This document shows, one piece after another, positions 5,689-18,802 of a DNA stretch of 53,370 nucleotides. Below the pieces are notes generated by a model that saw only the letters and a list, made by a program, of their open reading frames with translations, did no database searches and was not told where the DNA came from. The position numbers and the translations under genes were made by a program. How positions within the stretch are numbered: position 1 is the stretch's first letter; the number at the start of each line of letters is the position of its first letter. This stretch comes from Acidobacteriota bacterium (lineage in GTDB: Bacteria; Acidobacteriota; JAAYUB01; JAMOQF01), in assembly GCA_027064125.1 (NCBI GenBank), contig JAMOQF010000065.1, forward strand, positions 1-53,370, read 5' to 3'.

Positions 5689-6707
5689 ATGTAGTTTAAA
5701 AGAAGATTAACTTCTTCCTTTGATAAATTATACCCTTTCATACAATTTGACCCCTTTGGAAAGGATGTGAGGTCTCTTTTTAGAAGAAAGTCTTCTAACT
5801 TTTTTCGTGGATATTTTTTAAAATCCAGAAACCCACCCCCTGTTGAAATTTTATTTTTGTCATTTTTGGGTGTATGACAGTTAAAACATCCCTTTTTAAA
5901 GAAGATGTCAAATACCCTATCCCCTTTATTTTCTTTAATTATATTTTCTGCCAGTTTATCAACTACTTGAGGTGGAATTTTTAGATTTTTTATCTCTTCT
6001 GCGTGATTTGAAAGCATGAAGAGTCTAAATTTTCCCCTATCTTTTATTTTAAACTCTTTGAAAAATTTTTTTGAATGACATACAAGACATCCACAGTCTG
6101 AAGGGGTTATCTTTTCCTTTTTGGAAAGTGATAGGGGGTTGTTTGAAATTTTTATTACCTGTTGAAATAAGGCAAAAAAGTATATGGAGAGAAATAGGGA
6201 AATTATTACAAAAAATTTATTTAATTTTTTTAGTTTTTTAGAGGGAGTGAAAAAGAGTGTGGTAAATAATAATATAGATAGCAGTATTAAAGCCCCATTC
6301 AGGGTTTTAGATAGAAATAGTTTTTTTATTCCAAGAGTAAACAGGATAATAGATGTGATTGAGATATTTAGTCTTTTAACTGCAATGTTTTTTTTCTCTG
6401 AAATTAAGAATAGGGAGAGAAAAATTAATGAGATGGAAAGAAGTAGCAGGAAAATAAAGGAAAAAATTTGAAGATCCCCTCCTTTTAACCTTGTCCAGGA
6501 AAAGGTGTTTTCATATCTAAGTTTTTCAAAGTAGAGAAAGTTTGAAAATAGGAATATGGATGCTAAAATAAAGTAGAAAAAGGTGAAGTTACTGGCTTTT
6601 TCAATTTTTTTCTTTAAAAATGTAAAGAAAATCATAAAGGAGAGCAAAAAAATTGCAAAGCCTGTCGTATCAAGTATGAAAAGGGGATCTTTGTATAGAA
6701 AGTCCAT
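5673..6707 (-). CDS. membrane-anchored dihaem cytochrome c-like protein
   Basis: A 344-residue protein whose first 185 residues hold about six hydrophobic helices (near 9-30, 41-60, 80-102, 113-130, 137-153, 164-186). A soluble domain follows with two haem c attachment motifs, CLVCH (207-211) and CFNCH (274-278). A methionine in NCMKGYN near the C-terminus could be the distal ligand of the second haem. The soluble part would face the periplasm. The ATG directly abuts the stop of the cysteine synthase gene, so both probably share a transcript. No family with this exact architecture is recognised; a role in electron transfer from the quinone pool or sulfur metabolism would be inference. Confidence 0.72.
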   Translation of the reverse strand: MDFLYKDPLFILDTTGFAIFLLSFMIFFTFLKKKIEKASNFTFFYFILASIFLFSNFLYFEKLRYENTFSWTRLKGGDLQIFSFIFLLLLSISLIFLSLFLISEKKNIAVKRLNISITSIILFTLGIKKLFLSKTLNGALILLSILLFTTLFFTPSKKLKKLNKFFVIISLFLSIYFFALFQQVIKISNNPLSLSKKEKITPSDCGCLVCHSKKFFKEFKIKDRGKFRLFMLSNHAEEIKNLKIPPQVVDKLAENIIKENKGDRVFDIFFKKGCFNCHTPKNDKNKISTGGGFLDFKKYPRKKLEDFLLKRDLTSFPKGSNCMKGYNLSKEEVNLLLNYIYTSK

Positions 6708-13939: not shown

Positions 13940-14686
13940 ATGGCATTGAAAGGGAAAAAAGTTGTAATTACAAGGGATATTGAAGGTGGAAGGGAATTTT
14001 CTAAAATGGTATCCAGTAAAGGGGGGATTCCCATTTTATTTCCAGTAATAGAGTTTAAAGAGAATTTTTCGGAAGATAAAGTTTTCTTAAATGAGATATC
14101 CACCTTTGACATTTTTATCTTTCCCTCTAAAAATAGTGTGAAATATTTTTTCAATAAGATCCTGCCTGAAAAAATTTTTAAAAAAAGGATTTTTGCGGTG
14201 GGTAATAGGACCAGGAAAGAACTTCTTATGAGGGGTTTGTCAGTGGAGGAACTGCCTGAAGAATATACCGGTAGTAGTCTTTCCAGTAAAATAAGGGAAA
14301 CATCGGATTTAAAGGGTAAAAAAATTTTAATACCTTCTTCAAATATTGCCAGAAGAGAAAATTATTATGTTCTGGAAAAAAGTGGGGGTAGGTTATATTT
14401 CTGGACGGTTTACTTGAACTTAAAGAAAAAATTTAATCATGAAGAGGTAGAAGATGTTTTAAATTCACACTACATAACATTTTTTTCTCCTTCCGCCGTG
14501 AGCAACTTTTTTGAAATTGTGAAACCGGAAAAATTCAAAGGGGAAAAAGCTCCCAGATTGGTTTCAATAGGTCCCACCACTTCAAAGAAATTGAGGGATA
14601 TTGGAATTTATGAATTTTTACAGGCAAGGGTTTACAATTCTGGGGGGGTGATTGCCATTATGGAGGAAGACTCTGTCTCTTTTTGA
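13940..14686 (+). CDS. hemD: uroporphyrinogen-III synthase
   Basis: A 248-residue HemD-family protein that would cyclise hydroxymethylbilane to uroporphyrinogen III. It shows the two-lobed pattern of the family: N-terminal GKKVVITRDIEGG, an FPSKNSVKYFF segment, AVGNRTRKEL, KKILIPSSNIARRE in the second half, TFFSPSAVSNFF and VSIGPTTSKKL near the end. HemD is poorly conserved in general and these segments are the best diagnostics. No other haem gene is adjacent. The last codons lie within the palindrome at 14673-14691. Confidence 0.85.
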   Translation: MALKGKKVVITRDIEGGREFSKMVSSKGGIPILFPVIEFKENFSEDKVFLNEISTFDIFIFPSKNSVKYFFNKILPEKIFKKRIFAVGNRTRKELLMRGLSVEELPEEYTGSSLSSKIRETSDLKGKKILIPSSNIARRENYYVLEKSGGRLYFWTVYLNLKKKFNHEEVEDVLNSHYITFFSPSAVSNFFEIVKPEKFKGEKAPRLVSIGPTTSKKLRDIGIYEFLQARVYNSGGVIAIMEEDSVSF

Positions 14687-14691
14687 GACAG
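14673..14691 (+). promoter_or_regulatory. palindrome, possible enhancer-binding site or hairpin
   Basis: CTGTCTC and GAGACAG flank five T residues and overlap the hemD stop. The half-site TGAGACA recurs at 14714-14720 inside a second small palindrome (AAATG-AGA-CATTT). Both lie about 50-95 bases upstream of a sigma-54 promoter, where bacterial enhancer-binding proteins usually bind. A weak terminator for hemD is the alternative. Confidence 0.5.
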
Positions 14692-14738
14692 TAAAATATT
14701 TAAAGTCTTAAAATGAGACATTTATTTCCTCAAAAAGA

Positions 14739-14755
14739 TTGGCATTATGTTTGCT
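14739..14755 (+). promoter_or_regulatory. sigma-54 (RpoN) promoter
   Basis: TTGGCATTATGTTTGCT matches the -24/-12 consensus YTGGCAC-N5-TTGCW, with GG and GC exactly 10 bases apart; the deviations are T for the final C of the -24 box and T for the following G. Transcription would start near 14766, leaving a 15-base leader that carries GAGG before the ATG at 14781. Confidence 0.72.
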
Positions 14756-14780
14756 TAAATATAGTGTTGAGAGGTAGAAG

Positions 14781-15134
14781 ATGAAGGCTGCAGTTATTAC
14801 AAATAATGGGCATGTGGCGGTTAATTTTGATTGCGGGAGTGAGGTGGTAATTTTTAGTTGCGGTGGTGATATTTTAAGGTTTGAAAAGCCCTGGCAACTT
14901 GGGGAATTACTTGAACTTTTAGATTCGCATGGGGTGGAAGTTTTAATATGTGGTGGGATAAAGAAAATGGATTATAGATTTTTTGTTCTGAATGGTATTG
15001 AAGTCATTCCCTGGGTGCGGGGAAGTGAAGAAGAAGTGATTGATGGCTTTTGTGGCGGCTTTTTAAATTCTCCTTCATATTTTATGCCTGGTTGTTTCAG
15101 GCATAGAAGGGGTAGGAGATGGAGAAAATTTTAA
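14781..15134 (+). CDS. NifX/NifB-type dinitrogenase iron-molybdenum cofactor-binding family protein
   Basis: A 117-residue small protein of the NifX/NafY/MTH1175-like family (Nitro_FeMo-Co domain). The N-terminal KAAVITNNGHVAVNFDCG, central LICGGIKKMDYRFF and VIPWVRGSEEEVIDGF match the ribonuclease-H-like cofactor-binding fold. Outside nitrogenase clusters these proteins are thought to bind metal-sulfur cofactors or iron-sulfur clusters. A C-terminal Phe/Cys/Arg-rich tail (CFRHRRGRRWRKF) is unusual. It is first in a three-gene unit with a DUF5320-like and a zinc-ribbon protein, downstream of a sigma-54 promoter. No nif structural gene is present. Confidence 0.82.
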   Translation: MKAAVITNNGHVAVNFDCGSEVVIFSCGGDILRFEKPWQLGELLELLDSHGVEVLICGGIKKMDYRFFVLNGIEVIPWVRGSEEEVIDGFCGGFLNSPSYFMPGCFRHRRGRRWRKF

Positions 15135-15158: not shown

Positions 15159-15500
15159 ATGCCATTTGGTGATAGGACAGGTCCACTTGGAGAAGGACCA
15201 ATGACTGGAAGAAGGGCTGGTTTTTGTACAGGTAATGGTGTTCCCGGGTATATGAATCCCTGGGGAAGAGGATTTGGAAGGGGCTTTTTTGGAAGAGGAA
15301 GAGGATTTTTCGGAAGGGGGAGAGGATTCAGACACATGTTTTATTTAACGGGTGTGCCTGGATGGGCAAGATATGGGTATGTTCCTTATGAAACGGCAGA
15401 TGAAAAGAAACTTCTGGAAAATGAGGCAAAGGCCCTTGAGGAGGAATTGAAGTTGATTAAAAACAGGCTTGAAAAACTTGAAAAGGAGGAAGAAAAATGA
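15159..15500 (+). CDS. DUF5320-like Gly/Arg/Phe-rich protein
   Basis: A 113-residue protein starting with the DUF5320 signature (PFGDRTGPLGEGPMTGRRAG), then a Gly-Arg-Phe repeat region (GRGFFGRGRG repeated, residues 30-55), then a C-terminal coiled coil of about 35 residues (ETADEKKLLENEAKALEEEL onward). Families with this N-terminus are habitually found beside NifX-like genes. The function is unknown; the charged Gly-Arg segment could bind nucleic acid or a partner protein. AGGAGG lies 6 bases before the ATG. It overlaps the next gene by ATGA. Confidence 0.8.
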   Translation: MPFGDRTGPLGEGPMTGRRAGFCTGNGVPGYMNPWGRGFGRGFFGRGRGFFGRGRGFRHMFYLTGVPGWARYGYVPYETADEKKLLENEAKALEEELKLIKNRLEKLEKEEEK

Positions 15501-15700
15501 TAGGCGGAAGAGGACAGGGCAGTGGAAGTGGAAGAGGACTTGGAAAAGGTGGCGGAAGAGGCAGAATGGGCGGATTTGGACTTGGCCCCGGTGGGTTTTG
15601 TGTGTGCCCCAATTGTGGGGAAAAGGTAAAACATGTACAGGGAACCCCCTGTAATGCAATGAAATGTCCAAAATGTGGAACGGTAATGACAAGGGGATAG
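15497..15700 (+). CDS. small Gly-rich zinc-ribbon protein
   Basis: A 67-residue protein with a Gly/Arg-rich first half and a four-cysteine zinc ribbon in the second half: CPNCGEK (residues about 37-43) and CPKCGTVMTRG at the C-terminus, with an additional CVC and a PCN between them. It is translationally coupled to the DUF5320-like gene by a 4-base overlap. Similar small ribbons accompany NifX-like/DUF5320 genes in anaerobic bacteria. A role in metal-cofactor handling or regulation is a guess from context. Confidence 0.78.
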   Translation: MIGGRGQGSGSGRGLGKGGGRGRMGGFGLGPGGFCVCPNCGEKVKHVQGTPCNAMKCPKCGTVMTRG

Positions 15701-15714
15701 GGATGCCTATCCCC
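15693..15714. terminator. bidirectional terminator hairpin
   Basis: GGGGATAGG (15693-15701) pairs with CCTATCCCC (15706-15714) around a 4-base loop. It covers the stop codons of the convergent zinc-ribbon and uvrB genes. The flanking T-tracts are poor, so it may act with the help of other factors. Confidence 0.6.
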
Positions 15715-17704
15715 TCACCATTTTTAGTAATTTTTCAAGTTCCTTGATCTTTTCTCTTAAAACAATTGCCTCTTCGAATCTATATTGATGTGCAAGTTCC
15801 ATCATTTCCCTTTCAAGTTCTTTGATTGTCTTTTTTATCTCATTTTTGCTTTTTATTTTTCTTATGAGATTTTCAGTTTTTTCTGATATCTCAAGTATTT
15901 TATCTTCTTTTTGCCCTACAAGTAAAAATTTGATGGATTTTTTTATTGTTTTTGGAGTTATGTTGTATTTTTTATTGTATTCGATTTGAATTTTTCTTCT
16001 TCTTAAGGTTTCATCAATTGCCCTTTGCATGGAAGGAGTTATTTTGTCTGCAAACAGTATTACTTTCCCATTTACATTTCTTGCTGCCCTTCCAATTGTT
16101 TGAATTAGAGATGTATATGATCTCAAAAACCCCTCTCTGTCAGCATCAAAGATTAAAATTAGAGATACTTCAGGTAAGTCGAGCCCTTCTCTAAGCAGGT
16201 TTATTCCCACAATGACATCAATTTTGCCTTCCCTTAACTCCTTTAAAATCTTAATGCGTTCAATGGTTTTTATTTCTGAATGCAAATATCTTGCCCTGAT
16301 GCCCACATCTGTAAGAAATTTTGTTAAGTCTTCTGAAAGTTTTTTGGTGAGTGTGGTAATGAGGACCCGCTCTTTTTTTGCCACTCTTTTTTTTATTTCT
16401 GATATTGCCACCTCAATCTGGTTTTCAGTTTTTTTGACCTCTATTTCGGGATCCAGCAGTCCTGTGGGTCTTATAATTAGTTCAAATACATTTTCCCCGG
16501 ACATTTTTCTCTCAAAATCTCCAGGAGTTGCTGAGACAAATAGAACCTGATTTATCCTCTGGAAGAATTCCTCAAAGTTTAAAGGACGGTTATCAAGTGC
16601 TGAGGGGAGTCTAAAACCAAATTCCACAAGGGTTTTTTTACGAGATCTATCTCCTTCATACATTCCTCTTATTTGAGGAACGGTGACATGAGATTCATCT
16701 ATAAATATTAAAAAATCCTCCGGAAAATAGTCAAGAAGTGTAGGTGGGGGCTCCCCCGGTTTTCTGCCTGTGATGTGCCTTGAATAGTTTTCTATACCAT
16801 GGCAGTATCCTGTTTCTCTGAGCATTTCAAGGTCAAAATTTGTCCTTTCAAGTATTCTTTGTGCTTCAATTAGTTTTCCTTCATCCAATAATTTTTTATG
16901 ATACCAGGATAGTTCTTCTTCTATACTTTTTGTAATTTCACTCCACCTTCTCTTTGGAATGACAAAGTGGGTCGCTGGAAAGATAATTACTTCATCTCTT
17001 TCTTCTTTTCTTTTCCCGCTGAGTTTATCTATGGTATAGATACTTTCAATTTCTTCTCCAAAAAAATCAATTCTTATTGCTTCTCCACCTGATGGGGGAT
17101 TGATATCAACTATGTCGCCTCTGATTCTGTACTTTCCCGGCTGTGATTCGTAATCATTTCTTTCATATTGAAGTTCAGTTAATTTTTTGAGTAAATCTTT
17201 TCTCTTTATTGTGTCTCCCACTTTTAGGTGCAGTGTAAGATTGTAGTAAATATCCGGGGAGCCCAGGCCATATATGCAGGAAATACTTGAGACAATTATT
17301 ACATCTCTTCTTTCAAGTAAAGCCATTGTTGCCCTATGCCTCAATCTGTCGATTTCTTCGTTGATTTTTGAATCCTTTTCTATGTATATGTCTTCTGCTG
17401 GCAGGTATGCTTCAGGTTGGTAGTAGTCATAATAACTAACAAAGTATTCAACGGAGTTTTCCGGGAAAAAGTTTTTAAATTCTTGATAGAGTTGAGCGGT
17501 TAGTGTTTTATTGTGGGAAAGGATCAGGGTTGGACGATTTAATTTTTCGATAATATTTGCCATGACAAAGGTTTTCCCGCTCCCTGTTATTCCCACAAGT
17601 GTTTGAAAGGTATTTCCCCTTTTTATGGAATTTACTATTTTTTCGATTACCTCTTTTTGAGGGAGTGTTGGTGAGAAATCTGAAATTAATTTAAAACCCT
17701 TCAC
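15707..17704 (-). CDS. uvrB: excinuclease ABC subunit B
   Basis: A 665-residue UvrB, the damage-verifying helicase-like subunit of nucleotide excision repair. GITGSGKT (Walker A, 38-45), the damage-wedge hairpin YYDYYQPEAYLP, FIDESH (Walker B/DEAH box), the GREGLDLPEVSL-type helicase block and the Arg-finger motif QTIGRAARN are all present. The C-terminal UVR motif for UvrC/UvrA contact lies around residues 620-655. The usual GDQ motif before Walker A is altered to LPQK, which may affect adenine recognition. The start overlaps the upstream gene stop by 4 bases, so it is co-transcribed with the BtuF-like and DUF59-like genes. Confidence 0.96.
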   Translation of the reverse strand: MKGFKLISDFSPTLPQKEVIEKIVNSIKRGNTFQTLVGITGSGKTFVMANIIEKLNRPTLILSHNKTLTAQLYQEFKNFFPENSVEYFVSYYDYYQPEAYLPAEDIYIEKDSKINEEIDRLRHRATMALLERRDVIIVSSISCIYGLGSPDIYYNLTLHLKVGDTIKRKDLLKKLTELQYERNDYESQPGKYRIRGDIVDINPPSGGEAIRIDFFGEEIESIYTIDKLSGKRKEERDEVIIFPATHFVIPKRRWSEITKSIEEELSWYHKKLLDEGKLIEAQRILERTNFDLEMLRETGYCHGIENYSRHITGRKPGEPPPTLLDYFPEDFLIFIDESHVTVPQIRGMYEGDRSRKKTLVEFGFRLPSALDNRPLNFEEFFQRINQVLFVSATPGDFERKMSGENVFELIIRPTGLLDPEIEVKKTENQIEVAISEIKKRVAKKERVLITTLTKKLSEDLTKFLTDVGIRARYLHSEIKTIERIKILKELREGKIDVIVGINLLREGLDLPEVSLILIFDADREGFLRSYTSLIQTIGRAARNVNGKVILFADKITPSMQRAIDETLRRRKIQIEYNKKYNITPKTIKKSIKFLLVGQKEDKILEISEKTENLIRKIKSKNEIKKTIKELEREMMELAHQYRFEEAIVLREKIKELEKLLKMVRG

Positions 17705-18499: not shown

Positions 18500-18790
18500 T
18501 TACAATCCCTTCCAATTTTCCATTTCTATCTGTAAAAATCTCTGTCTTTCCTCTTCTGTCATTACCCTCTCAGTAAATTTTATCTCCATGCCAAGAGGTG
18601 AAAGTGCATTTACTATACTTACTTTTAACATATCCTTTATGGGAATATTGGGGAATGGATATGCCATCTCAATAGTTATTCCATTTTCCTCTACTTTATA
18701 ATCTGAGATGATCCCAAGTTTAAGCAAAGATGCATTTATGGCCGGGTGCATAACCTTATCCAGAAGTTCTCTTACTTTTTTTTCTTCCAT
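18500..18790 (-). CDS. divergent DUF59/MIP18-like small protein
   Basis: A 96-residue protein resembling the DUF59 (MIP18/SufT/N-terminal Mrp) fold used in iron-sulfur cluster assembly: VRELLDKVMHPAINASLLKLG matches the usual helix followed by the DPE-LGI block, and IEMAYPFPNIPIKDMLKV the following strand-helix. The canonical DPE is HPA here and the common cysteine is missing, so assignment is tentative. The start at 18790 is preferred since GGAGG lies just upstream; the frame also has an ATG at 18802. It is the first gene of the uvrB operon. Confidence 0.6.
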   Translation of the reverse strand: MEEKKVRELLDKVMHPAINASLLKLGIISDYKVEENGITIEMAYPFPNIPIKDMLKVSIVNALSPLGMEIKFTERVMTEEERQRFLQIEMENWKGL

Positions 18791-18802
18791 TTTATCCTCC
18801 AT

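What the first reader, a model, noticed from the sequence alone, without database searches (positions are those of the whole stretch)
14673..14781. Sigma-54 promoter with upstream palindromes drives a NifX-like/DUF5320/zinc-ribbon unit
TTGGCATTATGTTTGCT at 14739-14755 fits the RpoN consensus with correct 10-base GG-GC spacing, a 15-base leader and a ribosome site. Upstream, CTGTCTC-N5-GAGACAG and another TGAGACA half-site sit at typical enhancer positions. NifX-like/DUF5320 sets are common in anaerobes but their control and role are poorly known. This points to regulation by a dedicated enhancer-binding protein, perhaps redox- or metal-responsive.
Basis: partly seen in the sequence, partly recalled or inferred. 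Interest (0 to 1): 0.62.

Follow-up and report, generated by a model that had tools for sequence, protein, structure and literature searches.

The report
Sigma-54 promoter of an ORP-type operon
A real, widely conserved sigma-54 switch stands in front of a three-gene metal-protein operon in an uncultured bacterium, and comparison with relatives points to its likely activator, a cysteine-bearing sensor protein that here is encoded elsewhere in the genome.

Summary
TGGCATTATGTTTGCT (14740-14755) is a canonical -24/-12 element; the genome has rpoN, and the pattern occurs 23 times genome-wide against 0 for the reversed control. The CTGTCTC-N5-GAGACAG palindrome is real, and the "extra half-site" is a second, degenerate 17-bp site exactly 30 bp downstream. 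The same-genus genome G001 keeps both sites, 30 bp apart and 35 bp from its -24 element (0 of 5000 shuffles). A sigma-54 site precedes the orthologous gene at 15 of 17 loci in relatives. At 14 of 17 (a 15th in part) the next gene is a PAS-AAA-Fis enhancer-binding protein (EBP), often with DUF5320, zinc-ribbon, further NifX-type and ferredoxin-ATPase genes following: a set resembling the sigma-54-controlled orange-protein (ORP) operons of Desulfovibrio vulgaris. Here that cluster is split over three contigs. The EBP is an orphan on C209, the only one of nine own EBPs checked with the C-x8-C-x3-C PAS motif of the relatives' EBPs. A matrix from relatives' palindromes ranks the window and the orphan's neighbouring promoter first among 11 own promoters. 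Best reading: a new member of a known kind, with its activator now in trans. EBP binding and the signal sensed are not shown.

The parts
14674..14690 (.). Putative enhancer site 1, TGTCTC-N5-GAGACA; overlaps the hemD stop codon
   Evidence: Exact and unique in the genome; the counterpart TGTTGTAAAATAATACA sits at the same place in G001
14704..14720 (.). Putative enhancer site 2, AGTCTT-N5-GAGACA, 30 bp downstream of site 1
   Evidence: the counterpart TGTCTTATTTTGCAACA in G001 has the same 30-bp spacing and lies 35 against 36 bp from -24
14739..14755 (+). Sigma-54 -24/-12 promoter element TTGGCATTATGTTTGCT
   Evidence: conserved in front of 15 of 17 orthologues
14781..15134 (+). Divergent DIMN (NifX/NifB-like) protein, 117 aa
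   Evidence: PF02579 E=0.0018, below cut-off; family profile against DIMN profile hhalign 99.2%, E 2.6e-19; weak matches to solved proteins 2yx6 and 1o13
15159..15500 (+). DUF5320 protein, 113 aa
   Evidence: PF17253 E=2.7e-30
15497..15700 (+). Small cysteine-rich protein with a zinc-ribbon-like C-terminus, 67 aa; start overlaps the DUF5320 stop
   Evidence: Weak zinc-ribbon matches below cut-off; orthologue follows DUF5320 in G001 at E=4e-33
15692..15715 (.). Terminator-like hairpin between this unit and convergent uvrB

Best explanation
This is the sigma-54-dependent promoter of a short operon (divergent DIMN/NifX-like protein, DUF5320, zinc ribbon), part of a dispersed cluster resembling the ORP system. 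RNA polymerase with RpoN would wait at 14739-14755. An EBP bound as an oligomer to two 17-bp palindromes spaced 30 bp (about three helical turns) would contact it and open the promoter by ATP hydrolysis. The most likely EBP is the orphan PAS-AAA-Fis protein on contig C209 (L072:6269-7606, minus strand). It belongs to the group of EBPs that in relatives is encoded directly beside this same gene. Its PAS domain carries a conserved C-x8-C-x3-C motif that could hold a metal or Fe-S cluster or sense redox state. The products probably help carry or assemble metal-sulfur clusters together with the Fe-S ATPases encoded on C139. Shown by sequence: the promoter, its conservation, the paired sites in the genus, and the EBP's group. 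Inferred: binding of this EBP to these sites, the signal, and the biochemical role.
For: rpoN in the genome; sigma-54 pattern 23 against 0 control. The -24/-12 element precedes 15 of 17 orthologues, each score reached by fewer than 3% of shuffles. Paired sites in G001 with identical 30-bp spacing, 0 of 5000 shuffles. In relatives the order is EBP, sigma-54 site, NifX-like, DUF5320, and often zinc ribbon, NifX, two ferredoxin-ATPases and NifX; the adjacent EBP is always closest to own EBP L010. Own L010 groups with all NifX-adjacent EBPs at 100/100 and alone among nine own EBPs checked (L002-L010) has their PAS cysteine motif. Several relatives carry WGTNGC-N6-GCNACT palindromes. A matrix from these, built without window sequence, ranks G001, the promoter beside L010 and the window as the top three of 12.
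Against: The EBP is not adjacent in this genome, and no L010 orthologue was found in G001, which does keep the sites; but that assembly is only 82% complete. The window motif as such is not found beside L010. The window's match to the relatives' matrix is weak on its own (shuffle p=0.09) and its spacing differs by 1 bp. EBPs of a second group, with no NifX-type, DUF5320 or ATPase gene in the flanks read, fall inside the same clade. The C139 ORP-like genes show no clear sigma-54 promoter of their own.
Confidence: 0.66

Rival explanations
1. The promoter is a true sigma-54 promoter, but its activator is another EBP, for instance a two-component regulator shared with G001 (orthologues of L004, L005, L006 or L007).
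For: G001 keeps the paired sites, and L004-L007 orthologues were found there while L010 was not.
Against: None of these is linked to the NifX unit in any relative, and they lie outside the L010 clade. L006 sits beside pilA. G001 is incomplete.
Confidence: 0.22
2. The palindromes are operators of a repressor or another non-EBP factor, with the sigma-54 activator acting elsewhere or without specific DNA binding.
For: EBPs without DNA binding exist (established knowledge), and the site centres (about -84 and -54) are close to the promoter (by position).
Against: Tandem dyads in helical phase upstream of -24, conserved in the genus, and relatives' palindromes of the same GT...AC type between an EBP gene and its sigma-54 promoter fit an EBP better.
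Confidence: 0.1
3. The palindrome is only the 3' end of hemD or its terminator hairpin, and the sites are chance.
For: Site 1 overlaps the hemD stop codon; the inverted repeat alone is borderline; no regulon-wide enrichment.
Against: No terminator is called there, and no run of T follows; the second site and the 30-bp spacing are conserved in G001.
Confidence: 0.05

Closest known systems
orp1/orp2 operons of Desulfovibrio vulgaris Hildenborough with EBP DVU2106 and IHF (PMC3897727, PMC4641369, PMC6345978)
   Same: Sigma-54 promoters, a one-component EBP encoded in the cluster, palindromic upstream sites, DIMN-type proteins and paired ATPases with ferredoxin motifs.
   Different: In D. vulgaris the operons are divergent, the sites lie farther out (-131 and -88) and IHF bridges the gap. 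Here the unit is a divergent DIMN + DUF5320 + zinc ribbon, the EBP and ATPases are on other contigs, and the sites are at about -84 and -54. Homology of DVU2106 to L010 was not tested.
DIMN family PF02579 (NifX, NifB C-terminus, orange protein)
   Same: Profile-profile match over the whole length.
   Different: Scores below the Pfam cut-off; has its own conserved features (CG at 57-58, P103, basic tail).
NtrC-type tandem enhancer sites
   Same: Two inverted repeats in helical phase upstream of -24/-12.
   Different: Sequence unlike the NtrC site (TGCACC-N5-GGTGCA, from memory); very close to the promoter.

Membership tests
Sigma-54 (RpoN) promoter | GG-N10-GC core with TGGCA/TTGCW context | tested here: met
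Sigma-54 (RpoN) promoter | rpoN in the genome | tested here: met
   PF04552 E=7.2e-60
Sigma-54 (RpoN) promoter | Conserved in front of orthologues | tested here: met
   15 of 17 loci in relatives
Sigma-54 (RpoN) promoter | Transcription lost without rpoN | not testable with these tools
   Needs an experiment
ORP-type cluster | DIMN protein | tested here: met
   hhalign 99.2%; two further DIMN genes on C139
ORP-type cluster | Two ATPases with ferredoxin motifs (Orp3/Orp4-like) | tested here: met
   On C139; not linked to the window
ORP-type cluster | Genes clustered with the EBP | tested here: not met
   Split over C65, C139 and C209 here; clustered in relatives
ORP-type cluster | MrpORP (Orp9) fusion protein | not tested
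   No reference sequence was available
DIMN PF02579 | Score over the curated cut-off | tested here: not met
   19 against 26.3 bits
NifX-adjacent PAS EBP group (own EBP L010) | Phylogenetic placement with adjacent EBPs | tested here: met
   100/100; a second PAS group also falls inside
NifX-adjacent PAS EBP group (own EBP L010) | PAS C-x8-C-x3-C motif | tested here: met
NifX-adjacent PAS EBP group (own EBP L010) | Binds the window sites | not testable with these tools
   Only a weak motif ranking

The most novel reading that the evidence does not exclude
A cysteine-triad PAS enhancer-binding protein senses Fe-S, metal or redox state and controls, in trans, a dispersed ORP-type metal-cluster system with a drifted DNA code. 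A sigma-54-driven small RNA with CCUCC repeats beside the EBP gene tunes translation of the same unit.
Probability: 0.12. Interest if true: 0.6.

Novelty: new member of a known kind. Interest (0 to 1): 0.36.

Why it matters
It gives a rule that holds across a phylum: EBP, sigma-54 site, divergent DIMN protein, DUF5320. That ties the uncharacterised DUF5320 and zinc-ribbon proteins to ORP-like Fe-S ATPases and names one testable regulator with a likely redox or metal sensing domain. It also shows a regulator that has parted from its operon while the promoter layout was kept within the genus.

Tried and rejected
Genome-wide search for the palindrome to find a regulon: no enrichment. Search for the window motif at other sigma-54 promoters: none comparable. 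Naming the organism through genome contigs: only distant Lachnospiraceae and Christensenellaceae hits. L010 orthologue in G001: not found. hemD terminator reading: no terminator called. Conservation of the putative small RNA beside L010: none in 30 genomes beyond a 27-base match. Solved relatives of the zinc-ribbon protein: none convincing. Structure prediction was not run, because its stated rule does not cover alignments built from genome-search loci. The 2011 orp paper (PMC3133258) is not held.

Full report
Observation. The -24/-12 element, the palindrome and the extra half-site are at the stated coordinates. The strict sigma-54 pattern occurs 23 times in the 2.58-Mb genome against none for the reversed control. 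The clear intergenic ones stand before dnaK, groES, hsp20, pilin and other genes. rpoN is present, with about ten EBPs. The half-site is part of a second degenerate dyad, AGTCTTAAAATGAGACA, exactly 30 bp after the first. Three genes follow and end in a terminator-like hairpin before convergent uvrB.

The genes. The first protein scores below the Pfam cut-off for DIMN/NifX, but the profile of its orthologues matches the DIMN profile at 99.2% probability. The second is DUF5320 (E=2.7e-30). The third is a small cysteine-rich protein with weak zinc-ribbon matches.

Conservation. Nineteen of 99 genomes searched, the own one included, match the first protein. At the 17 loci examined in relatives, 15 have a sigma-54-like site 27-87 bp upstream of the estimated start that fewer than 3% of shuffles reach. 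At 14, and in part at a fifteenth, a PAS-AAA-Fis EBP gene lies directly beside it, always most similar to own EBP L010. The usual order is EBP, sigma-54 site, NifX-like, DUF5320, and often zinc ribbon, NifX, two ferredoxin-ATPases, NifX. In the window's genome this cluster is split: the window on C65; the NifX pair, the ATPases and a radical SAM gene on C139; the EBP on C209.

Regulator. Own L010 groups with all NifX-adjacent EBPs with full support. When a second PAS group without such neighbours is added, it falls inside the same clade. L010 alone among nine own EBPs checked carries the C-x8-C-x3-C motif seen in the PAS domains of the adjacent EBPs. Five relatives show WGTNGC-N6-GCNACT palindromes upstream of the promoter. 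A matrix from these plus a sixth, weaker one ranks the same-genus promoter, the promoter beside L010 and the window as the top three of twelve, though each is at best weakly significant alone. In the same-genus genome G001 both sites keep their 30-bp spacing and distance to -24 (0 of 5000 shuffles). G001 lacks a detectable L010, but it is 82% complete. The 17-bp frame was settled after looking at both promoters; the test itself scored G001 only with a matrix from the window's two sites.

Known background. In D. vulgaris, divergent orp operons are driven by sigma-54, the EBP DVU2106 at palindromes, and IHF (PMC3897727; PMC4641369). Orp3 and Orp4 carry ferredoxin motifs and are MinD-like, Orp8 is an orange-protein homologue, and Orp9 an Fe-S carrier (PMC6345978). 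The present case is the same kind of system with a different gene set, a detached activator and closer sites. Direct homology of L010 to DVU2106 was not tested.

Judgement. The promoter is real and conserved (about 0.95). Activation by the C209 EBP is likely but unproven (about 0.66). Redox or metal sensing is an inference from the cysteine motif. The finding is a solid new member of a known kind.

Noticed in passing
L072 (G000:C209) 5890-5991, minus strand: A sigma-54 element right downstream of the EBP L010 gene is followed by no gene but by a roughly 75-nt unit: a 5' hairpin, unpaired CAAACCUCCAAACCUCCC and a terminator (fold z -4.1). It looks like a sigma-54-driven small RNA, or a relic of the ancestral NifX promoter; not conserved in 30 genomes.
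   Followed up: partly
L104, L102, L105 (G000 C80, C73, C83): Strong sigma-54 elements stand in front of dnaK (with the palindrome TGTGGAG-N7-CTCCACA), groES and hsp20, suggesting sigma-54-controlled heat-shock genes in this genome.
   Followed up: partly
L072 5267-5868, plus strand: An IHF/HU-type gene followed by a MerR-type gene is convergent with EBP L010; IHF is needed for orp transcription in D. vulgaris.
   Followed up: no
window 18503-18802, minus strand: A PF01883 Fe-S assembly (DUF59/SufT-like) protein is encoded about 3 kb downstream of the unit on the other strand.
   Followed up: no
L063, L065, L068: In one family the NifX-adjacent promoters carry a different dyad, TGAAACA-N3-TGTTTCA-like, beside divergent EBPs, suggesting the EBP's DNA code shifts between lineages.
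   Followed up: partly
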